64,000 nt of DNA, from contig NZ_KQ130455.1 of assembly GCF_001046635.1 (NCBI RefSeq), positions 313,103 to 377,102 of the forward strand, given 5' to 3'. The notes under the pieces are model-generated. The model made no database searches. It worked only from the letters and a program-made list of their open reading frames with translations, and was not told the DNA's origin. Source of the stretch: Novosphingobium barchaimii LL02. Lineage in GTDB: Bacteria; Pseudomonadota; Alphaproteobacteria; Sphingomonadales; Sphingomonadaceae. Positions within the stretch are counted from its first letter, which is position 1, and each line of letters begins with the position of its first letter. Positions 51,304 through 64,000 of the stretch are shown in pieces. Position numbers and translations under genes: made by a program.

Positions 51304-51395
<92 letters not shown>

Positions 51396-51549
51396 GCTCC
51401 TCACAAACACTCCCAGAACTGCCCAGAATACCTCGCATTTTTGCGGGTTTGCCGCTATTAAGCTTGCCCGATCTACCCAAGCTTTCACCGATCTAACCGA
51501 GTGATGTGGGGGTAAAAGGTCGGGGTAAGCTGGCGATGGGGGAGCATCA

Positions 51550-51566: not shown

Positions 51567-52868
51567 ATGCTGACGGACAAGGAAGTGCGGAACGCGGCGC
51601 CGAGGGATAAGCCGTACAAGATTTCAGATTCGGGCGGGCTCTACCTGTACGTTTCAAAGACGGGCTCGAAGACCTGGCGGATGAAATATCGTCTGTTCGG
51701 GAAAGAGGGCTTGTTGACGTTCGGGCCGTATCCGGAGGTCAGGCTCACCGAGGCACGAGACAAGCGGGACGACGCGCGCCGAAAGCTCCGCGAAAACATC
51801 GATCCTTCAGGCGCCCGGAAAAAGGCTAAGGAGGCAGCCGAGCGCGAGAAGGCGGAGGCGGCGAAGCAGGTAGCATTCGAGGTTGCCGCACGCGCTTGGT
51901 TCGAGTTGCAGAAGCCTCGCTGGGCCCCTGTCCATGCCAACGACGTCATCACCAGCCTTGAGCGCGACGTCTTCCCGTCGCTCGGCGCGAAGGCCCTGGT
52001 GTCGATCGACGCGCCGGCGGTGCTTAAGACCTTGCGTCTGGTGGAGGCCCGTGGCTCCATCGAGACGGCGAAGCGCCTGCGCCAGCGGATCTCGGCGGTC
52101 TTCTCTTACGCGATTTCCGAGGGCGTCGTGACGCATGACCCAGCGGCGGTCGTGGGCAAGGCGCTGAAGCCACTTCCGAAGAAGGGGAAGCAGCCGTCCA
52201 TCACAGACCCGGACGAAGCGCGGGAGGTCCTGATCGCCGCAGAGGGATCGGGCGCAGACCCGGTGACGAAGCTCGCATCGCGCTTCCTGGCGCTGACGCA
52301 GGCTCGGCCTGGCATGGTCCGATTCGCGGAGTGGTCGGAATTCGAGGGGATCGACTGGGAGGGGGAAGCCTTCGGCCCGTTCATGCCGCTCTGGCGTGTG
52401 CCGGCCCAGCGCATGAAGCTGGTGGCCGACCTGAAGGGGGAAGATGAGTTCGAGCACCTGGTGCCGCTCTGCTGGCAGGCTGTGGAGGTGCTAAGAGCAA
52501 TCCGACGCATGTCCGGCCGGGGAAGGCTGGTCTTTCCTGGGCAGCGGCATAGCCACCGGCCCATCAGCGAAAACGCGATCGGCTACCTCTACAACCGCGT
52601 CGGGTTCTTCGGCCGCCACGTCCCGCACGGCTGGCGGGCGGCATTCTCGACGACCATGAACGCGATCGCGGTGAAGCAGAAGCGCATGGCGGACCCGGCG
52701 ATCATCGAGCTGATGCTAGCGCACGTCCCGGAGAACCAGGTGAAGGCCGCCTACGATCGGGCCGGGCACATGGAACGGCGGCGCGAGCTGGCGCAGGAAT
52801 GGGCGGATATGCTGATGAAGGGGATGCGGCCGGCGAATGAGCTGCTGGATGGGCCGAGAAGGGGCTGA
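51567..52868 (+). CDS. Tyrosine-type integrase of the element
   Basis: A 433-residue tyrosine recombinase with an N-terminal DUF4102-type arm-binding domain (MLTDKEVRNAAPRDKPYKISDSGGLYLYVSKTGSKTWRMKY), a core-binding domain (FEVAARAWFELQKPRWAPVHANDVI), and a catalytic domain with LTQARPGMVRFAEW (first Arg), HGWRAAF (HxxR) and AAYDRAGHMERR, carrying the Tyr nucleophile. This is the P4/CP4-57-like type that integrates into tRNA 3' ends. It is directly next to tRNA-Ser(CGA) and marks the left end of the mobile element that fills the rest of the window. Confidence 0.93.
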   Translation: MLTDKEVRNAAPRDKPYKISDSGGLYLYVSKTGSKTWRMKYRLFGKEGLLTFGPYPEVRLTEARDKRDDARRKLRENIDPSGARKKAKEAAEREKAEAAKQVAFEVAARAWFELQKPRWAPVHANDVITSLERDVFPSLGAKALVSIDAPAVLKTLRLVEARGSIETAKRLRQRISAVFSYAISEGVVTHDPAAVVGKALKPLPKKGKQPSITDPDEAREVLIAAEGSGADPVTKLASRFLALTQARPGMVRFAEWSEFEGIDWEGEAFGPFMPLWRVPAQRMKLVADLKGEDEFEHLVPLCWQAVEVLRAIRRMSGRGRLVFPGQRHSHRPISENAIGYLYNRVGFFGRHVPHGWRAAFSTTMNAIAVKQKRMADPAIIELMLAHVPENQVKAAYDRAGHMERRRELAQEWADMLMKGMRPANELLDGPRRG

Positions 52869-52982: not shown

Positions 52983-53792
52983 ATGATTAATCGAAGGTTA
53001 GTTATTGTTAATGGTGCGGTTGCCATTGCTGCTGTCGCATTGCCTTTCGGTTCGGTCGGCTCAGCGGTTGCGCAAGAACCTAATCTTGAGGCCGATCTCG
53101 CTGCCGTTCGAAAGCGTCTTGCGTCTTATTACAAGAAAGTCACCAATGCATCTTTGGCCTCGCCACCGCCAGGTGCTGCGGCGTCGAATGGGTGGTTTGT
53201 CAAATACATGAAAGACGATGCAGACCTGAGCGTGACGCAGCGGCCGATACAGACGGCGACCTCTGAAGGAAAGATTTGCGCGGATCTAGCGCAGGGGATG
53301 ATGGCTTATTGCCGATCTGGCTTTGGGCCTGGAACCTACAAAGCGAATTGGGCCACAAGCTTTGACATGTTGTTAGCTAATTTGGAGGCAGCAACTTCTG
53401 GATTTACTCAGATGGCGTCGCAAATGGTTCATTCAATTTTGGGTGACATCCCTGTCGTCAACTCAATAGTCGAACAGATCGACGGTCAGATCAATCAGCT
53501 TGCTGCCTCTGCAAGACAAAAAGGTCCCACGTCGGGCGATCATGCGAATGGATGGATTTCGGTAGGCGTCCGTGATGGCGCAAACGCGTGGTTAGGACAG
53601 TCCAACGGGGCGCTAGGAAACCTGACTGCCCCCAAATCAAAGGACCTTGTCGAAACAATGAAGGTATTTGCAAACGCGATGGCTGGGCTCAACACAGAAG
53701 GGCACAGTCCGTGGTTAAAGGGTGAGTGGCAAGTCGGTTTCGGAGCAATCACTTCAACAGCTTACCATGTGCTCGAAGCCGAACCCGATTGA
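52983..53792 (+). CDS. Secreted orphan protein in the island cargo
   Basis: A 269-residue protein I do not recognise. The N-terminus (INRRLVIVNGAVAIAAVALP, ending near AVAQEP) is a signal peptide with an arginine pair, Sec or possibly Tat. The mature part starts with a helical segment (LEADLAAVRKRLASYYKKVTNA), then a Cys pair (GKICADLAQGMMAYCRSGFG) that may form a disulfide, a hydrophobic/amphipathic helix (ASQMVHSILGDIPVVNSIVEQIDGQINQLAA) and a Gly/Trp-containing end. Base composition is visibly lower in GC than the core genes. GGGAGAG lies about 7 bases before the ATG. It is the only plus-strand gene in the cargo block. Confidence 0.75.
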   Translation: MINRRLVIVNGAVAIAAVALPFGSVGSAVAQEPNLEADLAAVRKRLASYYKKVTNASLASPPPGAAASNGWFVKYMKDDADLSVTQRPIQTATSEGKICADLAQGMMAYCRSGFGPGTYKANWATSFDMLLANLEAATSGFTQMASQMVHSILGDIPVVNSIVEQIDGQINQLAASARQKGPTSGDHANGWISVGVRDGANAWLGQSNGALGNLTAPKSKDLVETMKVFANAMAGLNTEGHSPWLKGEWQVGFGAITSTAYHVLEAEPD

Positions 53793-53858
53793 ATAACCTG
53801 TGGGTCCAGTACGCATCGGACGCTCGATCTCTTGCGAGGCCACCTTCGTCGAGTTCAG

Positions 53859-53960
53859 TTAAAGCGTCTGAGCCCAGGTCACCGCCGCATAGGCCGCCTG
53901 CTTCGCGGCTGGCGTCGTGGCCGCCTTGATCGCGAGCACGACTTCTACACTCGATCGCGG
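53859..53960 (-). pseudogene. Degraded C-terminal remnant of a phage tail-type gene
   Basis: On the minus strand a frame reading VEVVLAIKAATTPAAKQAAY followed by AAVTWAQTL ends in TAA at 53859. It is interrupted by TAG about 34 codons upstream and has no start. This kind of ending is seen in small phage tail or baseplate proteins, as I judge by appearance. The 236 bases of 53793-54028 otherwise show no gene. It suggests earlier phage genes were lost here. Weak. Confidence 0.3.
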
Positions 53961-54028
53961 CGAGACGGGCTAGCTCCACGATTGTCGATGGCACGCTGCG
54001 TTGCTTGGTTTGGTTCAATGATACCGCC

Positions 54029-55084
54029 TTATCGCCCGAACTCAGCATCGTATGCCTGGAGAGCTCTCTCACCAGCATTGTCCAATTTTTCGGCCCAACC
54101 TTCTGGTAATCCAAGGACGATCGAAAGCCGATGTTCGCCTGCTTTTGGATCCTCGGTCAGAATTTCTGATAAGAAAGCGGGCACCTTCGCCGCCTCATCG
54201 ATTAGGTAGCCCGCTACGCCGGCAAGGAGCGACAACATCTCACTGAATATGTCATCTACTTTTGCGAATTGGACAGTTTCCTCCCACACCAATGCGCTGC
54301 GGCACATCTCTGCAAATAGCCTGGTCGTCGCGACGATTTCACTCGCATCCCCAGAGCTTTTGGGTAGGCTCCGGTCGCCCCACGACCGCCCGAACTCTAC
54401 GTTCATCAATTCGCCGAATGCCCGCGCGATGCCTCGAATTTCAGCCATCCGCAAGCTTGTCCATCGGAAGAATTCTGACGCTGGAACGGGAACAGCAGGC
54501 AGCATGTACAGCCCCCTTTGCAATGCTCGCCAGCGCTGAAGCACGGGCGACATTTCATAGCGAAGCATCTCCGCCGTAAGCCGGTACTCCCAGTTGTCCG
54601 ATTTCTCGATAAGCAGACGCTCGGCACGATAACTGATGCGACCAAATTCCTCTAGGTAACGAACCTCGTAGCGGCGACGTGCTTCCGCCCCAGCCTTCCC
54701 GATCATCCGCCCAATTTCCAACTCGTGCTGCTTGACCCATTCAAAGAGAATGCCGGCCGGAAAGCGGGCTTCATCATCGTCGATCAGCTTATGGCAGTTA
54801 CCGCACAGCCAAATTGCGTTTGTGATATCGGAGCGCGCTGAAGACACCATTTTTGGGTCATATCGCGCTGATCCAGGGTGCGCGCCGTAAATGTGCGCTG
54901 CCTCCCCAACATTTACGGTGCCGGCCGGGAGATCGGTTGGTCCAGTGGTGATTGCCATGCAATCTGGGTTTGAACAGCGATGCGCGGCGCGCTTCGCTAT
55001 TGCTGCGATAACAGGTTTTTTGAACCGGTCAGACGATGGAGTAGTCACCGCTGCTAGGTGCCTTTGAGCGCTTCGATCCGTCAA
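54029..55084 (-). CDS. HNH-type endonuclease-domain protein
   Basis: A 351-residue protein. The N-terminal ~110 residues form a zinc-containing HNH-like nuclease module: C37 and C42 (HRCSNPDC), the histidine in GEAAHIYGAHPG (~H64), and NAIWLCGNCHKLIDDDEARFP with C94, C97 and H98. The remaining ~240 residues are helical and match no family I know, with segments such as RYEVRYLEEFGRISYRAERLLIEK and SLLAGVAGYLIDEAAKVPAFL. Such HNH-plus-unknown-domain proteins often appear as effectors in defence islands. Its neighbours are the secreted orphan (convergent) and the KAP NTPase (same strand, ~285 bases upstream). Confidence 0.8.
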   Translation of the reverse strand: MTDRSAQRHLAAVTTPSSDRFKKPVIAAIAKRAAHRCSNPDCMAITTGPTDLPAGTVNVGEAAHIYGAHPGSARYDPKMVSSARSDITNAIWLCGNCHKLIDDDEARFPAGILFEWVKQHELEIGRMIGKAGAEARRRYEVRYLEEFGRISYRAERLLIEKSDNWEYRLTAEMLRYEMSPVLQRWRALQRGLYMLPAVPVPASEFFRWTSLRMAEIRGIARAFGELMNVEFGRSWGDRSLPKSSGDASEIVATTRLFAEMCRSALVWEETVQFAKVDDIFSEMLSLLAGVAGYLIDEAAKVPAFLSEILTEDPKAGEHRLSIVLGLPEGWAEKLDNAGERALQAYDAEFGR

Positions 55085-55368
55085 CAGCTATCGTTCGTTG
55101 GTCCGGTCGTTGTTGACGTTCGAAGTGAACATAACTGTCATTCCGATTAGCGCCGAGCTCGGAATTTAATCCATATAGATCAGTTGGGCCTGTCGCCATA
55201 CCGCAGAAAGCTTCAAAACCTGCGCCTTACCCCGACAGCCCCGGCCGAACATTATCCACCGTTTCGACAGTTCGGGGTTGAAAGCGAGGTTTGTTGCTCG
55301 GCGGGGACGCCGGCCAAAAACGCATACTATATCTCGTCGAAGGCATGGTCGGCTTTGTCGCCGATTAC

Positions 55369-57489
55369 CTACGAATCGTCAGGGCCTGCTAGCGTAGCGC
55401 GGAGCTGTCCGACTGCATTATCGATCCAAGGTTGCAGCGGAGGGGTCGTGAAATCCGCTTCACCAAGAGCTTTGGTGACTGGAACCGGGTCGAATAGTTG
55501 AGAGACTGAGGCATAACTGCTGCCGTAACCTGGGGGATAAATCAGCGCCGCCATCGTTGCCAACGCATCGCGGCCGTCAAGTTGATGTGTGAGAGAGTCG
55601 CGAAGGTCGTTGCCCCAATACTCGTTGTTCGCAAGAGTATAGATCACCTCTAGGTTGGGAAGCCGACGCAGCGCCGTGCCGTCGAGCACGGCATCCCGAT
55701 AGCGAGGAATTTCGCGCTGCAGTAAATCGATCGCCTCCGATTTAGTGTAAAGAACGTCATTATTGACCAATTCCTGTCCGTATCTTCCGTTAACATATAA
55801 CTGCTTACGCAATATGGTAGGAGTAATCGCGAGATCGCCTGAGGCAATTAAAGCATCAACAGCCGCCTTTACGCGAGACTCTTGTTTTCGGTCTCGTATT
55901 GCCAGATGCGTCAACATAGCTGCAGCATCATCGACCAGCGCATACTCTGGCCCCGGGCTAGTCATCCAGTCGCGTGACCGGGTCAAAGCACGCGAAAGTA
56001 CGGGCCAGAACAACGTATCCCCGTTGGCAGGCAACTGCGCTATCAGATCGTCCATGCGATCGAGAAAGGCAGTCAACTCGCCTGCTTCCATCAATGCCCG
56101 TAGCGCTGCTTCCATTTCGGCGGCGTCCCGCATCTGCCAAATTCGCTCGATATCTTTGCGCGCAACCGCTCCTGGTGGATTTCCAAGATATAGCAGGCGC
56201 ACCATGTTACGGCGGCGATCCAGTCGGTTTCCATCGTTGCCGGTCGCATTCTGGTCTTCCCGGAAATTAGGAAATAGGAGAAGAAGCAGGTCGTGGTGCG
56301 CCAATGCGCATTCACCAAGGATTTCAGATGGGAGTGGCGGCCTTTGATTATTGCTGTGACGTCGCATCAAATCGGCGATGAGAGTGCGGTCGGTCACGTC
56401 GGAGACGATACCGTCGAAGTGAACCATAATCGCCTCGCGTAGGTCAGGCGCCTTAGTCAGTATCCAAGAGTAGGCGAGGACATCGACAGGTTCGATTTCC
56501 CCGCGTGTTGCTTGTTCGAGCACCGCGAAGGCGCCGACGAGACGCTTGATGTCGCGAGGCGTCGTGACCTCTCTCTTAATCTGGTCAAAGATTGCGCGTT
56601 GATTCTCTCGCTGCTCGTCCGGAAGCGATACCCCATAGGTTTCGAGCTCCGCTTTGAGCAACGCATCTACATCCGCTTCGAATAGCGGACGCAGCGGTAT
56701 CGGCAGCTGGACAATCTTTTCCAGATATCGCGCACCGGAAGTGAGCCGATCTTGCCCGACACCGCGGCCGAGCGCGTCGGCAACCCGGTCTGGATCGTAT
56801 GCGACTAGATACGATACGCCCTCGATGTCGCCGACCGCCTTGATCAGCTGCGCCACCGCGCGCACTTCGTCGTCTTCTACCCGGTCGAGTTCGTCGATCA
56901 GTACGACGACTGCGACCTTCGCCGTCGTGATCTTCTTTTCAAGAAAGCGCCTTTCCTCCTCGGGCGAACGTGCCTCTGGCTTTGCTATGGCATCCTTAGT
57001 GCGCTTGCTCCACAGACCCCAGCCTGTCGTAGCGGCGCCGCCCGCGCCATGCAGGTCAGCGACTGCGGCTACCGCGTGCCCAGCAAGGTCTATGGCGCCC
57101 CAGTAACGTTCGAGGGCCTCAGCCAGGTCCCGGCCATGCTCTCTGGTGCTGCGCCCCATGTCATCGCGAAGGCCGCTAAAGAAGCCGCGCACGAGTTCAT
57201 CCCGGCCGTTGAAAAGCCATGGATTGAAATAGGAAACAATCACTCTGTCCATTGTCCCCAGCTCGGCTTGAACGAGCGACAGGATACTAGACTTACCTGA
57301 GCCCCACTTGCCGGTCAGGCCAACGACAAATCCTGAGGATGACCGCCCAATTAGGTTACCTTGAGCATCCCTGCTGTCTCGCACAAGGGTCCGTACGAGG
57401 CTGGCGACGAACGGCCCGCGATCAAGTTTATCGTCCCGATTGCGACGGATTGGCCGATCTTGGTTGGGATGCTGGGTGGTTGAGGTCAT
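55369..57489 (-). CDS. KAP family P-loop NTPase
   Basis: A 706-residue KAP NTPase. After a short basic N-terminus come GPFVASLVRTLVRDSRDAQG, Walker A GKWGSGKSS (residues ~60-68), IVSYFNPWLFNGRDELVRGFF, then Walker B VVVLIDELDRVEDDEVRAV with the catalytic acidic residues, and LVAYDPDRVADALGRG. The WLFNG(R/D)EL pattern is typical of the KAP group. Unlike many KAP proteins I see no pair of membrane helices inserted before Walker B; the insert (WGAIDLAGHAVAAVADLHGAGGAATTGWGLW) is only mildly hydrophobic. The C-terminal ~300 residues are helical. KAP NTPases occur in phage-exclusion systems (PifA) and defence islands. The ATG at 57489 is used; 57513 is in frame. Confidence 0.88.
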   Translation of the reverse strand: MTSTTQHPNQDRPIRRNRDDKLDRGPFVASLVRTLVRDSRDAQGNLIGRSSSGFVVGLTGKWGSGKSSILSLVQAELGTMDRVIVSYFNPWLFNGRDELVRGFFSGLRDDMGRSTREHGRDLAEALERYWGAIDLAGHAVAAVADLHGAGGAATTGWGLWSKRTKDAIAKPEARSPEEERRFLEKKITTAKVAVVVLIDELDRVEDDEVRAVAQLIKAVGDIEGVSYLVAYDPDRVADALGRGVGQDRLTSGARYLEKIVQLPIPLRPLFEADVDALLKAELETYGVSLPDEQRENQRAIFDQIKREVTTPRDIKRLVGAFAVLEQATRGEIEPVDVLAYSWILTKAPDLREAIMVHFDGIVSDVTDRTLIADLMRRHSNNQRPPLPSEILGECALAHHDLLLLLFPNFREDQNATGNDGNRLDRRRNMVRLLYLGNPPGAVARKDIERIWQMRDAAEMEAALRALMEAGELTAFLDRMDDLIAQLPANGDTLFWPVLSRALTRSRDWMTSPGPEYALVDDAAAMLTHLAIRDRKQESRVKAAVDALIASGDLAITPTILRKQLYVNGRYGQELVNNDVLYTKSEAIDLLQREIPRYRDAVLDGTALRRLPNLEVIYTLANNEYWGNDLRDSLTHQLDGRDALATMAALIYPPGYGSSYASVSQLFDPVPVTKALGEADFTTPPLQPWIDNAVGQLRATLAGPDDS

Positions 57490-57513: not shown

Positions 57514-58104
57514 CTCGAGGGAAGTGGGAAGTCATTTTGCGAGTTATCATTTGGCGATCGCGGTCCAGCCATGTCCCGTGGGAGCCTGCAGCTTTTGCTG
57601 AGCCGCTGGCTGCGTACCATTGGTCGCGGCATCTGGCACGCACACCCTATCTGCTGGGTCAAAAGGCATCAGATATTCGGTGTGATCGCCTCCCCCGGTT
57701 CTAGGCCATTTCTGTCACCGGCAATCTTGGGCAACAGACCCGGACTTCTGACGCTTCAGCGGCGCCTCCGCTATTGCATGCGTATCGCAACATACGAATA
57801 AATCCATGCTGCGTAATAAAATTACGGGTCCTACCTAGTTAATTGCGCACCCTAAAGCGCATAGGAACCGCGTTTTATGCGCGATTTTGAGCCCCATAGG
57901 TTCGCAATAGTTAGAAGAACCAGTCACTTAGACACAAAAAGGGCGGCCAAGCCGAAGCCTGACCGCCCTTTTCGTGAATGGGGCAGCCGGCCTGAAGCTC
58001 CGGCCGCCCCTCCCGGCGGAAAACCCTCCGCCGGCCCCGTGCCCCGCCCCGTCCAAGGGCGAGGCCCACCCGAGCGGGGGAAGAGGACCCCGCCCGATCT
58101 CGTG
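57514..58104. other. 590-base gap between KAP NTPase and tail module
   Basis: No gene that I can support. It contains the terminator at 57937-57972 and GC-rich sequence with several further inverted repeats at 58000-58100. The KAP gene promoter should lie just right of 57513. AT-rich stretches such as the one at 57780-57850 are unlike the tail module and mark a composition break. Confidence 0.5.
57937..57975 (-). terminator. Terminator of the phage tail operon
   Basis: AAAAGGGCGG and CCGCCCTTTT form a 10-bp stem with a 16-base loop that ends in a T-run on both strands. It lies 132 bases past the last tail gene (58105) on the minus strand. Confidence 0.75.
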
Positions 58105-58887
58105 TTACCTGTAGAAGACCGACCTCTGCGGGGCCGGCGCCACCTCGCGGCGCATTGCTACTGCGAGGGTTGCCGGCTCGTAGTGGTCGCGGAGCTGCAC
58201 CGACTTCGGCAGGCCTCCCATATACGCCGCTCCCTTCCCGGCAAGGATTGCGGCCAATGCTACAACCTCGTCAGGGACCGGCATCGAGTTCCCGAGGGCC
58301 AGTAGCGAACCAGACGTCGACACGCCGGTGGCAGCGTGCGCCGTTTCATTAAGGCCTGGCGGGTTGCTGTTCGTTGCCCGGCCGATCGCGCTGAGGGCTG
58401 CAAAGCTTTCCATGATGAGCGTTGCCCCTTCTTTCGCTTTGTCGAGGTATGCCTGGCACAACGGTCTGAGTTCCTCGAGCGCCCGACGCGCCGCGGCCCG
58501 CTGAGTGTCTTGACGCTGGCGCTGCAGGGCGGTCCTGCGGGTCGCCAGCGCGGACAAGCCTTCCGAGAGGGCATCACGTTCGTGCTCGAGCGCTCCACGG
58601 TCAAACTTGCTCGCTGCGGCGTCGGCGGGAGCTACGCCGGCAAGCAACGCATCGGCCACCGCGTTCCCATCGTCGATATCGAGGGTCGAGCGTCTAGCGG
58701 GATTGCTCTCACCGTTCAGCTCGCGGACGAGCTGCAAGACTTCCTCGCGCCGGGCGCGCGCTCCCTGTATGGCCTCCTCAATCTGCCCAAGCTGCTGGTC
58801 TATTCCGGCAATGCGCTCGTTCTCGGCGGAGAAGTCGAGAGCTTGAGCGCGGCGGGTGGCTTCGTGAAGTGCGGTTTGCAGGCTCAT
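58105..58887 (-). CDS. Phage-associated coiled-coil protein, unknown function
   Basis: A 260-residue protein, last in the tail operon. The N-terminal 80 residues are coiled-coil (RRAQALDFSAENERIAGIDQQLGQIEEAIQGARARREEVL), followed by a second helical part (ERDALSEGLSALATRRTALQRQRQDTQRAAARRALEEL). The C-terminal ~80 residues are Ala/Gly-rich with the end VFYR. The start overlaps the stop of the 223-residue gene by ATGA, so the two are translated together. I recognise no family; position suggests a structural or assembly role. Confidence 0.7.
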   Translation of the reverse strand: MSLQTALHEATRRAQALDFSAENERIAGIDQQLGQIEEAIQGARARREEVLQLVRELNGESNPARRSTLDIDDGNAVADALLAGVAPADAAASKFDRGALEHERDALSEGLSALATRRTALQRQRQDTQRAAARRALEELRPLCQAYLDKAKEGATLIMESFAALSAIGRATNSNPPGLNETAHAATGVSTSGSLLALGNSMPVPDEVVALAAILAGKGAAYMGGLPKSVQLRDHYEPATLAVAMRREVAPAPQRSVFYR

Positions 58888-59555
58888 GAGTAGATCCTCC
58901 GATGGGCTTCCATTCTGGCGTTAACGCGGTCCCACACCGCATCGGCGGCGGCGCGGCCAATTGCCGGCCCATGCTTAGGCACCAGTGCGGGAGCGTCGGT
59001 GGCAGCGCGTCCGTAAGCGCGATCCCAGACGGCACCGCTTGCCTTGCGGCTCCCGTTCTCAGCATTGGCAGCGGGGGCCGATCTTCGCGCTTCGGCCCCG
59101 AAACGGGCGCGGTCCCACACCGCATCCGACGCTTCGCGCTTTGCCTTGGCGCGGATATCCGCGTCGGTCGGCATGCTCGCCAGGCTCCCCAGGATCTGCG
59201 CGGTGGTGTAGTTCTCCTTCGCTTCCAGCAGGGCCTTGGCGGTGAGCTGGCGGCCCCTCGCGGCAATCGAGCCCATCACGGCATCGTGACGCTCGGCGCG
59301 CCGCGTCCGCGCAATCTCAGCCTGCGACATAGCTGGCACCTTGGGGGCGGCTGCAGGCGGCTGGGCCGGGGTCTGCGTCGTCGACTGATGAGCGGCCGCT
59401 CCCGGCTTGGTGTTGATCGCTCCAGGAAGCGGCGCGCTGAGACGGGCTTGGAAGTTGTCAAAGCGGCGGGGCGCGCCCGCCGCGAGCGGGAGCCCGGTGC
59501 GCAAGTCGGTCCCATTCTTTTCGCGATGAGCCGTCAGTCTTGAACTCGTGGTCAT
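58884..59555 (-). CDS. Phage-associated protein with three AVWDR motifs
   Basis: A 223-residue protein. The first ~75 residues are low-complexity and Pro/Ala-rich. A helical middle (MSQAEIARTRRAERHDAVMG, RQLTAKALLEAKENYTTAQILGSLA) is followed by a C-terminal part with AVWDR at residues 145-149, 175-179 and 206-210, each preceded by a small-residue pair (ASD, ASG, AAD) and spaced by about 30. I know similar 'x-x-x-WD-x-A' endings in phage head and tail proteins, but cannot name a family. It follows the tape-measure gene in the same direction. Confidence 0.7.
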   Translation of the reverse strand: MTTSSRLTAHREKNGTDLRTGLPLAAGAPRRFDNFQARLSAPLPGAINTKPGAAAHQSTTQTPAQPPAAAPKVPAMSQAEIARTRRAERHDAVMGSIAARGRQLTAKALLEAKENYTTAQILGSLASMPTDADIRAKAKREASDAVWDRARFGAEARRSAPAANAENGSRKASGAVWDRAYGRAATDAPALVPKHGPAIGRAAADAVWDRVNARMEAHRRIYS

Positions 59556-59573
59556 GGGTCTTTCCTTTCGTGG

Positions 59574-62500
59574 TTAGAAGTAGCTGGGCAGGGAAATTCG
59601 CGGCGATCCGGACGACGGCATAGTGCCCCCGTTTGCTGCGATCTGGCTGAGGAAGGACAGCGCCCGCCCAAGATTCTCATTCACCGCATCGAGGCGAGAC
59701 ACGGTTTGGTCGGTCTGGGTGTCGATCGACGACTTGACGGCGCCGGTGGCATCGAACGGGCTGTCCCGGTTCTCGGCGATGGAAACGACGTTGGTCTCGG
59801 CATCGATGCGTGTCTTCGTTAGGTCGGTCACCTCGTTGAGGCGGTCGAAGTATTCCTGCTGCGAGCCGTAGAGGTCCCGTTCGATGTCGAGCAGCTGCTG
59901 AGCGGCGCTGGCATAGTCATCGTAAGCAGAGCTATCGCCGGCTTTCACCCGGGCCGCCAAGCCGTCATAGGTGCCCAGCGCCGCCGCTCTGCGGTCGCGG
60001 AGCGAGAGCCCATTGTCCCCGGTGGTGAGGCCGTCGAGTAGGCCTTGCAGGGAGCCCAGGATGCGATCCTTGTAGTCCTCGGCCGCCTGGGCCTGCTTGA
60101 TGCTGTATAGCTCCTGCAGGTCGGCCATTTCCGCCGCACTGGCGCCAGCTGTCTTGGCAAGGTCGATGTACCGTTCGAACTCCTTGTCGAGATCGTCCAT
60201 CGCCGAGCCCAAGGGATCCTTGATCGACTTCAGCTCGCGGAATACGTTCTCCCAATCTAGCGCGTCCTGCAAAGCCGCTTCGAGGTCGTCGCCGGCCTTG
60301 ATGATGTTGAGGGTGGATGCCCTCATCCCCTTGAGTGCGCCATCCTCGATCGCGTTCTTCACTGCGAAGGCGATGGCCGCCTCGGCATCATCCCCGAACG
60401 AAATCGCCCCTTTGTCGATCTTCAGGCTCGTGCCGTTGGGATTGACCCGGTATTCGTCACCGCGCGTACCGATCGACACCATGAAGCTGCCGACGGTGCC
60501 GCCGAGCTTGTCGACGATGTTCGTCAGGTTGCCGATGACGCTATCACCCAGCCCAGCGACGGTGCCGTAGTTCCCGTTGTCCTTGCCGCCTTGGGTATAG
60601 CCGTTCGCATTCGTGATGACGGCATTGGCGGTGCGATTGCCCTTCAACAGGCCGCCGAGCAGGCCGCCAGCGATCGAGCCGATGATGTCGCCGCCTGGGA
60701 TACCGGTAAGACCCCCGAGCGCACCGCCGATCTGAGCCCCGGTTGATGAGGTCTTGAGGCCAATGCCCTTCATCAGACCAGCCGCCATGCTGCCGGTTTG
60801 CACGCCGCCGAGGGCATCGTCGAACCTGCCAAGTAGCTTTTCCGTCATGCCCTTGCCGAAGACGTCAGGGCCATAGTCGAATACCATGCCCCGCAGCCCG
60901 CCAACCGCGCCACCGACTGTGCCGCCCGTCATTGCGCCAGCGAGGGCGCCGCTCAGTGTACCGGACAGGTTCTGGAAGAACGTGGTGCCCATGGTGTGAT
61001 CGAAGCCGGCAAGCAGCGGATCGACCGTCGCGTGAGCGGTCTTCTCCGCGAGCTGCTGGATAGTCAGCTTCGTGAGGTCGGTGGCCCCGGTCTTCGCGGC
61101 TGGTGAGGCGCTGGGACGCGTGCCCGGCACTGTCACGGCATTCCCGTCAACCAAACTGGCGGAGACCGCGTCCGTGCCCGCTGCGCCAATACGCTTCGTG
61201 GCACCTTCGACTGCGGTGGCGAGATCCTCCAGCTTCTTGCCGGCGGTATCTACGCCTTCGGTCAACCGGCCTGTCGCCTTGCCCAAGGGGGAGCGCTGCC
61301 GAAGCTGATCTTCCAGTTCCTGGAAAACGCCGCCGAAGATCTCATCCGCGAGACGCGCACCCTGCAGGTCCTTCAGGCTCTGCTTCATGCTGCCCAGGAA
61401 ATCCGTCTTTCGGCCCGAAAGCATGTCGGTGAGGCTGGTGCGCGCGGTGTCGATGACGTGCAGCTGCGCCTCGAACAGGGCGCGCTGACGTTCCGCCTGG
61501 CGCGTCCGCTCCTCTTCGATCTGCGCCAGTTCGGCCGCCTCGCGCTTCATTGCTGGGTACGAGGCGAGCAGCCGTTCGAAGATCGCCGCCTCATCCTTCC
61601 GGCCGGCAGTGATGAGGTCCTGCATCTTGGCCCGCAGCTCTTCCTCGCTGCCCAGCTTGTCCTCGATGCTCCATACTGCCTGCAGCGCCGCGGCTTCGTC
61701 GTCACGGCCCGCGGTCAGCAGGTCCTGTACCTGAAGGCGGCGCTCGCTTTCCTTCCGCATTTCCTCAAGCGGGCGGAGCAGAGAGTCGGCGACCACATCC
61801 TTCGCGTCCCGGGCCTGCTCAATCATTTCCGCGAAGCCGGCGGGCTTGTGTTTGCCCAGGTCAGCGATGACCGCATCCAGATCGCGAGTGGCGCGTGCTG
61901 CCTGATCGATAGCCTTCGGCTGCTCGTCGAACTGCTCCGTCGTGCGCCTGATAGTCTCGATGGCCTTTTCGCCGGCAGCTTGGTCCGCTGCGGCTTTGCG
62001 CTCTGCGGCCTTGGCCGCACGTTCTGCCGCTTTCGCGGCGCGATCGTCCTCGGCGGCGCGCTTCTTGCCATCGACGGCCGACCTGTCGGCAGCATCAGCC
62101 TTCGCCTGGATGTCGGCCCGCATTTGACTGACCTTGAGCAGCGCCTGCGCGTCCTCAAGCTCTTGCTGGGCATCATCGCGTTTCAGCTCGAGGCTGCGAA
62201 CGCCCGCCGCCAGGCCGACATTCCCGCTCGCGGTTTTAATGGTTCGGTCCAGCTGGGAAACCGCCGTCTGCTTCTCGAAGACATCGGCCTGGGCATAGCC
62301 GAGCTGCTGCATCGTCACGCGGCCCTGGGCTTGCCGCAACCGGTCGAGCGAGTCCGTGAGGCCATCGACTTTTTTGGAGGTGGTGTCCGCCTCGTCGCCG
62401 GTATCAGCCAGCGATGCGATGAGCGGACCCAGCACCGAAACACCGACCACCAAAGCTGCGCCCCATGGCCCGCCGAGGAAAGCTGCAAAGCGGCCCATGC

Positions 62501-63395
62501 GCGATCCGGTGTTCTCCACCTTCTCCGCTACGCCGATCGCCTGCTCGCCAAGGCCCTCAATGTCGACGCCGGCCTCGTCGGCCGCTTCGCCCGCCTTCGA
62601 TATGCCCTGCCCCGCAGTGCCGCCGGCCGCGCTCATCTCTGCGAGTGCCGAGACGATCGAGCCGCCCTGCTGGGCCATGATAGTGAACCACGACGTTCCC
62701 ATCTGCGCCTGGATCGCCACGTCCTGCAGCTGGTAGGACAGGTTCTGCATCGCCGCGCGGTGGCGGCCCGAAGAATCGGTGGCGTTGTCGTTCGCCGAGG
62801 CCAGGAGCTTGGTGGCGCCTGCCGTTCGGGTGGACGCCATCGCCTCGTCGCTGAGTTGAGCCTGAACCTGTTGCAGCATCGCAGCGTGATCGTGCGCCGC
62901 CGCTGCCGCCGCCCGCTGCTCCACCGCTACCGCCTCGGCTGCCGCCACGTTGATGCGCGCGCTCTGCGAATACGCCCCCTCCGCTTCAGCCGCCCGGCGC
63001 ATCGCGTCAGCGACTTCCTGCGCGGCGTTCGCCTTCCCCTGCAGCGCCTGGGCTTCCTGCTGCGCGCCAGCGACGTCCAGTACGTCCACCGCGCGCGTCA
63101 CGCCGTCTCCGCGCTTGCCGGCCTGGGCAAGGCTGCGCGTAATCTTCTGCTGCATGGCGTTGAATTGGCGCTCGAAGTCATCCGTCGCGCTGCCCAGCGC
63201 TGAGCCGAGCTGCGCCGGCAGTATCTGAGCCAGCTTGCCGGCGCCGCCCTGGATGGTGGTGAAGGACTGCTCGAACTTGCGGCTCGTCAGCGCGGCCGCC
63301 GCTTCCGCATCGCTTTCGAGCCGGTCGAAGACGCCGTTCTCTTCGTAGCGCATCTGGATGTAGGCGGGCAGCTGGGTCGGTGTGTTGGTGGCCAT
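59574..63395 (-). CDS. Phage tail tape measure protein
   Basis: A 1273-residue tape measure protein, which sets tail length and helps DNA injection. It has long Ala/Gln/Glu-rich coiled coils (AEAVAVEQRAAAAAAHDHAA, AEDDRAAKAAERAAKAAERK), a hydrophobic segment (FAAFLGGPWGAALVVGVSVLG, residues ~310-330), and glycine-rich stretches (GTLSGALAGAMTGGTVGGAVGG) in the last third. Large size, position in a minus-strand tail module and composition support the call. If tail length scales at ~1.5 angstrom per residue, a long flexible (siphovirus-type) tail is implied; this is inference. The ATG at 63395 starts MATNTPTQLPAYIQMRYEEN. Confidence 0.9.
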   Translation of the reverse strand: MATNTPTQLPAYIQMRYEENGVFDRLESDAEAAAALTSRKFEQSFTTIQGGAGKLAQILPAQLGSALGSATDDFERQFNAMQQKITRSLAQAGKRGDGVTRAVDVLDVAGAQQEAQALQGKANAAQEVADAMRRAAEAEGAYSQSARINVAAAEAVAVEQRAAAAAAHDHAAMLQQVQAQLSDEAMASTRTAGATKLLASANDNATDSSGRHRAAMQNLSYQLQDVAIQAQMGTSWFTIMAQQGGSIVSALAEMSAAGGTAGQGISKAGEAADEAGVDIEGLGEQAIGVAEKVENTGSRMGRFAAFLGGPWGAALVVGVSVLGPLIASLADTGDEADTTSKKVDGLTDSLDRLRQAQGRVTMQQLGYAQADVFEKQTAVSQLDRTIKTASGNVGLAAGVRSLELKRDDAQQELEDAQALLKVSQMRADIQAKADAADRSAVDGKKRAAEDDRAAKAAERAAKAAERKAAADQAAGEKAIETIRRTTEQFDEQPKAIDQAARATRDLDAVIADLGKHKPAGFAEMIEQARDAKDVVADSLLRPLEEMRKESERRLQVQDLLTAGRDDEAAALQAVWSIEDKLGSEEELRAKMQDLITAGRKDEAAIFERLLASYPAMKREAAELAQIEEERTRQAERQRALFEAQLHVIDTARTSLTDMLSGRKTDFLGSMKQSLKDLQGARLADEIFGGVFQELEDQLRQRSPLGKATGRLTEGVDTAGKKLEDLATAVEGATKRIGAAGTDAVSASLVDGNAVTVPGTRPSASPAAKTGATDLTKLTIQQLAEKTAHATVDPLLAGFDHTMGTTFFQNLSGTLSGALAGAMTGGTVGGAVGGLRGMVFDYGPDVFGKGMTEKLLGRFDDALGGVQTGSMAAGLMKGIGLKTSSTGAQIGGALGGLTGIPGGDIIGSIAGGLLGGLLKGNRTANAVITNANGYTQGGKDNGNYGTVAGLGDSVIGNLTNIVDKLGGTVGSFMVSIGTRGDEYRVNPNGTSLKIDKGAISFGDDAEAAIAFAVKNAIEDGALKGMRASTLNIIKAGDDLEAALQDALDWENVFRELKSIKDPLGSAMDDLDKEFERYIDLAKTAGASAAEMADLQELYSIKQAQAAEDYKDRILGSLQGLLDGLTTGDNGLSLRDRRAAALGTYDGLAARVKAGDSSAYDDYASAAQQLLDIERDLYGSQQEYFDRLNEVTDLTKTRIDAETNVVSIAENRDSPFDATGAVKSSIDTQTDQTVSRLDAVNENLGRALSFLSQIAANGGTMPSSGSPRISLPSYF

Positions 63396-63921: not shown

Positions 63922-64000
63922 TCAGACCGCGGCCTCGCCAGTGATCAACAGGTGAAGGTCATCGACCAGCACCAGCGTCTTGGCTCCGACCTTTCGTAGC
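63922..64000 (-). CDS. Tail-module gene, C-terminal fragment cut by the window edge
   Basis: The minus-strand frame ending with TGA at 63922-63924 reads AKTLVLVDDLHLLITGEAAV at its end. It is open to the window edge, so only about 25 residues are visible. One base separates its stop from the next gene's ATG, so it is in the same operon. No identity can be given. Confidence 0.55.
   Translation of the reverse strand, partial: LRKVGAKTLVLVDDLHLLITGEAAV

What the first reader, a model, noticed from the sequence alone, without database searches (positions are those of the whole stretch)
52983..57489. Candidate undescribed defence module in a prophage: secreted orphan, HNH protein, KAP NTPase
Between the integrase and the tail genes lies an AT-richer cargo block. 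A KAP-family NTPase and an HNH-nuclease-like protein share a strand, facing a secreted protein with no known family. KAP NTPases are known in phage exclusion (PifA) and HNH proteins are common effectors. A sensor NTPase with a nuclease effector would make a two-gene system; the secreted protein may be a separate moron.
Basis: inference. Interest (0 to 1): 0.7.

Follow-up and report, generated by a model that had tools for sequence, protein, structure and literature searches.

The report
Solitary HNH and KAP prophage cargo
A prophage inserted beside a transfer-RNA gene carries three unrelated cargo genes, two of them plausible but untested antiviral genes, and they do not look like the two-part defence system first proposed.

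Summary
The three ORFs are real and at the stated coordinates: a secreted orphan (52983-53792 +), an HNH protein (54029-55048 -) and a KAP NTPase (55369-57489 -), in an AT-richer block between a tRNA-Ser integrase and phage tail genes. The two-gene KAP-HNH system is not supported. In 12 other loci with a full-length HNH relative, no relative of this KAP gene lies in the fetched flanks; 6 of 9 genomes and 3 of 3 viral fragments among them hold no KAP_NTPase match at all. The two close KAP relatives (50%, 46%) have no relative of this HNH gene on their contigs.

The HNH protein looks self-contained: an HNH domain like that of CBASS Cap5, joined to a conserved helical domain of about 190 residues without a match in Pfam, PADLOC, PDB or viral folds. 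One protein carries this helical domain on a different N-terminus (DUF4236 plus a hydrophobic two-helix stretch), suggesting an exchangeable sensor. The KAP protein forms its own clade beside PifA. Best reading: independent prophage morons, two of them single-gene antiviral candidates. Defence activity is inferred, not shown.

The parts
51304..51393 (+). tRNA-Ser(CGA), integration site; synteny with three relatives ends at 51393-51397
   Evidence: ARAGORN, Rfam, blastn against G001, G033 and G007
51567..52868 (+). tyrosine-type integrase
   Evidence: Pfam Arm-DNA-bind_3 and Phage_int_M, PHROG integrase; motifs HGWR and AAYDR present
52983..53792 (+). secreted-type orphan, 269 aa
   Evidence: ORF; no family
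54029..55048 (-). HNH protein, 339 aa from the GTG start (351 aa from TTG 55084)
54722..55036 (-). HNH domain, residues 17-121 of the 351-aa numbering
54032..54637 (-). helical C-terminal domain, from residue 150 of the 351-aa numbering
55049..55368 (.). 320-base gap between the KAP stop and the likely HNH start
55369..57489 (-). KAP NTPase, 706 aa
57289..57312 (-). Walker A of the KAP NTPase, residues 60-67
56881..56910 (-). Walker B region of the KAP NTPase, residues 194-203 (VVVLIDELDR)
58105..63395 (-). tail-side block: two ORFs of unknown family and a tape measure protein (59574-63395)

Best explanation
The block is a moron (cargo) slot of a prophage inserted at tRNA-Ser(CGA) and holds three independently acquired genes. 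The HNH protein is a self-contained two-domain effector: I infer that the helical C-terminal domain senses an infection cue (a small ligand, a phage protein or a DNA state), after which the HNH domain cuts DNA, either the invader's or the host's in an abortive response. The KAP NTPase is, by inference, a separate single-gene exclusion protein that works broadly like PifA: it meets a phage product, uses NTP and stops the infection. The secreted orphan is a third, unrelated conversion gene. Shown here: gene anatomy, conserved residues, lack of linkage in the loci examined, the KAP clade, and a second protein context for the helical domain. Inferred: every functional step.
For: Independence: no relative of this KAP gene in the flanks of 12 of 12 full-length HNH loci (for L001-L010; for L066; for L078); KAP_NTPase matches in 3 of 12 of their genomes or records, none near the HNH gene. 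ORFs within 6 kb of the HNH gene, all against all over 12 loci and the window: four cross-locus pairs, none with the window, no family in three loci. Both close KAP relatives lack a relative of this HNH protein on their contigs. Moron slot: synteny ends at the tRNA and three relatives carry other integrases there; composition differs; the G108 prophage has other genes beside its related tail block. HNH-domain matches are annotated as lysogenic conversion proteins in phage P2-EC46 and in Yersinia phage 31.17 (2 records), 3 of 5 phage records matched. Self-contained effector: invariant residues in both domains; PADLOC HNH effector matches; the helical domain recurs on a DUF4236 protein; one distant HNH relative lies beside a ThsB_TIR gene. 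KAP: best PADLOC model is PifA; hhalign probability 98.8 over 576 columns with F-plasmid PifA.
Against: No functional test. The KAP protein falls outside the PifA clade and scores lower on the PifA model (171 bits) than three other KAP proteins that also lie outside that clade (237-265). I saw no defence gene beside most of the 12 HNH loci, though their neighbours were mostly judged by eye. The sensor role rests on one domain swap. Same strand and order would allow co-transcription, and two genes brought together recently could still cooperate here. The fetched flanks are short (0.4-8 kb a side).
Confidence: 0.6

Rival explanations
1. One reading: the KAP NTPase senses infection and licenses the HNH nuclease.
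For: Same strand, KAP upstream of HNH; both domain types match models of defence proteins.
Against: No linkage in 12 HNH loci or 2 KAP loci; 320-base gap; the HNH protein has a conserved second domain of its own.
Confidence: 0.08
2. The HNH protein is a modification-dependent (type IV) restriction enzyme whose helical domain reads modified phage DNA.
For: HNH domains occur in such enzymes joined to a reader domain (PMC7897488 and PMC11037411, search listing only); a solitary gene is expected.
Against: Pfam up to E 0.1 gave only HNH_2 and a weak zinc-finger match, no known reader domain; no fold match.
Confidence: 0.15
3. The HNH protein is a prophage housekeeping or homing nuclease, not a defence protein.
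For: It lies in a prophage here, and 3 of 12 relatives lie in viral contigs; HNH folds are common in phage packaging and homing (recalled).
Against: Other relatives lie in diverse genomic settings without evident phage genes (judged by eye); best PADLOC matches are defence effectors; composition differs from the tail genes.
Confidence: 0.12

Closest known systems
CBASS Cap5 (HNH-SAVED) and similar HNH effectors
   Same: N-terminal HNH domain with conserved cysteines; one polypeptide with a second domain that could sense. PADLOC SAVED_HNH and CBASS 'Effector' models; PDB 9om4, 7rwm, 8fm1, 8ysq, 7rwk and 9dif match the HNH part only.
   Different: No SAVED domain: the C-terminal half is another, helical domain. 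No CD-NTase among the neighbouring proteins scanned. In Cap5 the SAVED domain binds 3',2'-cGAMP and activates the HNH domain (PMC8568899, passages).
PADLOC PDC-M68A (candidate system)
   Same: Best PADLOC match, 80.2 bits, residues 26-128.
   Different: Only the HNH part aligns (profile 10-112 of 253); no second gene of that system was identified.
PifA of plasmid F
   Same: KAP NTPase of similar length (706 and 741 aa); 21% identity over 533 aligned positions; hhalign 98.8 over 576 columns.
   Different: Separate clade; 171 bits on the PifA model against 963 for F PifA; no room for a pifC upstream.
QatA and Tmn (other KAP-family defence proteins)
   Same: KAP NTPase family (PMC12424860 and PMC13273231, passages).
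   Different: QatA models score only 36 and 30 bits; two QatA-type proteins fall elsewhere in the tree. Tmn sequence was not compared.

Membership tests
PifA | KAP P-loop NTPase domain with intact Walker motifs | tested here: met
PifA | place within the PifA clade | tested here: not met
   tree of 13 proteins: window clade 100/100, PifA clade 100/97; some branches are long
PifA | pifC immediately upstream, as on plasmid F | tested here: not met
   615 bases between the KAP start and the tail block hold no such ORF; F layout
PifA | exclusion of T7-like phages | not testable with these tools
   needs a plating assay
CBASS Cap5 | HNH nuclease domain | tested here: met
CBASS Cap5 | C-terminal SAVED domain | tested here: not met
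   PADLOC and PDB matches stop by about residue 131; C-terminal profile finds no SAVED chain in PDB
CBASS Cap5 | CD-NTase next to the effector | tested here: not met
   the eight window proteins scanned gave no such Pfam match
PDC-M68A | full-length match to the model | tested here: not met
   residues 26-128 only, profile 10-112 of 253
two-gene KAP-HNH system | conserved adjacency of the two genes | tested here: not met
   0 of 12 HNH loci, 0 of 2 KAP loci
type IV HNH restriction enzyme | known modification-reading domain (EVE, SRA and the like) | tested here: not met
   no such Pfam match up to E 0.1
prophage moron | accessory gene of differing composition in a variable slot of an inserted phage | tested here: met
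   the far end of the element lies outside the window

The most novel reading that the evidence does not exclude
The helical C-terminal domain is an undescribed sensor module of bacterial antiviral proteins that is swapped between effectors: an HNH nuclease in most carriers seen, a DUF4236 protein with a hydrophobic two-helix stretch in at least one. It would parallel the way SAVED sensors are combined with HNH or two-transmembrane effectors, and define a family of single-gene antiviral proteins carried partly by prophages. Beside it, the KAP protein would represent a further clade of single-gene exclusion NTPases.
Probability: 0.3. Interest if true: 0.6.

Novelty: new variant of a known kind. 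Interest (0 to 1): 0.4.

Why it matters
It corrects a guilt-by-adjacency claim: neighbours in a prophage cargo slot need not be one system. It leaves two candidates that can be tested one gene at a time: an HNH effector with an unexplained, strongly conserved helical domain, and a KAP clade distinct from PifA. If the helical domain is a sensor, finding what it binds would open a new recognition route in bacterial immunity.

Tried and rejected
Rejected: KAP-HNH pairing; filing the KAP protein as PifA; filing the HNH protein as Cap5.

Led nowhere: single-sequence model of the orphan (pLDDT 37); its one hit in 197 relatives (E 6.7e-4 inside an 843-residue frame), not pursued; promoter and terminator scan (3 promoter-like sites against a shuffle mean of 3.4, 3 terminator-like against 5.7); Foldseek of the HNH model, no match at E 0.001 or better in PDB or BFVD, best PDB hits talin helical bundles from E 0.13; relatives of the KAP gene, the orphan and a tail-side gene in viral contigs, none confirmed; KAP in 50,697 phage records, none; DNA of one HNH homologue in E. 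coli genomes, none.

Rows dropped or special: L011 is not among the 12 HNH loci because only residues 17-121 match. L010 is counted although its gene is broken into two ORFs, and was left out of the alignments. L009 has 381 bases of upstream flank; L001-L003 have 5 kb a side; the rest 7-8 kb. Three of the 12 are viral-contig fragments. Genomes matching the HNH domain alone (14 of 15; 6 of 7) were not counted as full-length. Seven of the 12 came from a pattern scan that reaches close relatives only. In one search at most 2 candidates per genome were scored, so KAP relatives there may be missed. In one search the tblastn of the tape measure protein against the G108 stretch printed only its first 42 residues, whereas one search gave 57% identity over residues 389-1265; I did not resolve this. 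On contig L065 a 303-residue ORF about 3.8 kb from the KAP gene looked HNH-like by eye; Pfam gave no match and it is no relative of this HNH protein. L005 has a second, sub-threshold HNH_5 protein beside the HNH gene.

Full report
What is there. The window carries tRNA-Ser(CGA) at 51304-51393, an integrase at 51567-52868, the three cargo ORFs, and a tail-side block on the minus strand that includes a tape measure protein. Cargo gene GC is 0.52, 0.553 and 0.57 with GC3 0.50-0.60; the integrase, the tape measure gene and two host genes have GC 0.645-0.655 and GC3 0.80-0.84, and another tail-side gene has GC3 0.73.

It is an inserted element. G001, G033 and G007, the three best matches among 61 genomes searched with the tRNA region, match the window up to bases 51397, 51393 and 51394, the end of the tRNA, and then diverge. 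Each then carries another integrase (51%, 41% and 29% identical to this one); the other six window proteins tested gave no match in the fetched 14.0, 5.2 and 13.0 kb. The tRNA end is therefore an integration hotspot, and the cargo is not part of the shared chromosome there. The far end of the element lies beyond base 64000. The tape measure protein has matches in 21 of 197 relatives. In G108, the best of them, two other genes, one of them DUF4760, lie beyond the end of the related block; whether these are prophage cargo was not settled.

The HNH protein. Library matches cover about the first 130 residues: PADLOC PDC-M68A 80.2 bits and two HNH effector models at 63.7 and 63.6, Pfam HNH_2 at 20.3, cut-off 21, and PDB chains such as 9om4, 7rwm and 8fm1. 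Twelve other loci encode full-length relatives: three viral contigs, seven named genomes (one gene broken), and G163 and G571. Ten share 49-56% identity, the last two about 33-34%. Full-length relatives are rare: 1 of 197 relatives and 1 of 398 genomes drawn from the phylum, while HNH-domain-only matches were found in 14 and 6 more. Presumed active-site and zinc residues are invariant in 11 sequences, and 24 columns of the C-terminal domain are invariant in 12. AlphaFold2 from 11 sequences gives a helical C-terminal domain with mean pLDDT above 90 in residues 171-220 and 251-300, 70-86 between them; the HNH part is poorly modelled (overall pLDDT 72). Foldseek found nothing at E 0.001 or better and the C-terminal profile has no convincing PDB relative.

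A second context for the helical domain. The C-terminal profile alone, searched in 329 Pseudomonadota genomes, found one match, in G308 (E 3.4e-18): residues 442-627 of a 635-residue protein (hhalign probability 97.9 over 185 columns). Its N-terminus is DUF4236 (77 bits), followed by a hydrophobic stretch that I read by eye as two helices, with a sub-threshold SLATT match (E 0.0074). This is one case, but it shows that the domain can occur without the nuclease. SAVED sensors are likewise reported with HNH or two-transmembrane effectors (PMC8568899, passages). I infer a sensor or adaptor role.

The KAP protein. Walker motifs are intact. Of 197 relatives, 19 have some match, and two have a close full-length one (50% and 46% identity). 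In 398 genomes drawn from the phylum, one partial match reached E 1e-40 (at most two candidates per genome scored). PADLOC ranks PifA first, at 171 bits. F-plasmid PifA scores 963 and four members of its clade 467-758; three further KAP proteins score 237-265, the window's two relatives 167 and 149, and two QatA proteins 99 and 101. The tree of 13 proteins groups the window protein with its two relatives (100/100), apart from the PifA clade (100/97); several branches are long. It may work like PifA; by clade it is not PifA. PifA is described as sensing T7 proteins and killing the cell by membrane depolarisation, with a narrow range in a phage panel (PMC8594841, passages).

Are they a pair? The evidence says no. 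None of the 12 HNH loci has a relative of this KAP gene in its flanks. A family search for KAP_NTPase matched 3 of the 12 genomes or records: Comamonas, about 730 kb from the HNH gene if its contig 1 is the chromosome; Pectobacterium, on another contig or else about 377 kb away; and P. fluorescens P5A, on another contig, since the match position exceeds the length of the HNH contig. Six genomes and the three viral fragments had no match; absence from a fragment is weak evidence. The same search rang in 10 of 14 control genomes. The two KAP contigs, 9.4 and 14.1 kb, hold no relative of this HNH protein. ORFs within 6 kb of the HNH gene share no recurrent family. In the window the genes are 320 bases apart.

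The orphan. No relative was found in viral contigs, plasmids, PHROGs, Pfam over cut-off or PDB; one weak match in 197 relatives may be chance. Its model is unusable. It is probably a real exported protein, and nothing more can be said.

In print. Ten searches of the held open-access library listed no paper that I recognised as describing this HNH-helical family or this KAP clade; subscription papers are mostly not held, and I saw passages of six papers, otherwise listings and starts of abstracts. P2-like phages and satellites are reported to carry hotspots of antiviral genes (PMC9122126, start of abstract and passages). HNH-domain matches are annotated as lysogenic conversion proteins in P2-EC46 and Yersinia phage 31.17. 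One distant full-length relative lies near a ThsB_TIR gene. These make an antiviral role plausible and do not prove it.

Verdict. Observation confirmed; two-gene interpretation not supported; best reading is independent morons, with the HNH-helical protein the most interesting of the three.

Noticed in passing
L094 / L098 (G308), 635-residue ORF: The helical C-terminal domain occurs on a DUF4236 protein with a hydrophobic two-helix stretch instead of an HNH domain.
   Followed up: partly
window 51304-51397; L091, L092, L093: tRNA-Ser(CGA) is an integration hotspot: three relatives carry different integrases directly after it.
   Followed up: partly
L066 7382-9932 (G163): A distant full-length HNH relative is followed by a small membrane-like protein and a ThsB_TIR protein.
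   Followed up: partly
L080 8347-14096 (G006): A stretch with an integrase 48% identical to the window's carries an HNH-domain protein that overlaps an upstream gene of no Pfam family; phage head-like genes lie on the other side (judged by eye).
   Followed up: partly
window about 57936-57972: A GGGCGG/CCGCCC inverted repeat flanked by A and T runs looks like a two-way terminator between the tail block and the cargo; seen by eye, with a loop too long for the scan.
   Followed up: no
L010 7989-8992 (Variovorax): The HNH gene is split into two ORFs there, as if decaying.
   Followed up: no
L031, L032, L034, L035: Relatives of G001 (same genus or order) carry KAP proteins that score 467-758 bits on the PifA model, so PifA-type genes occur among them.
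   Followed up: partly
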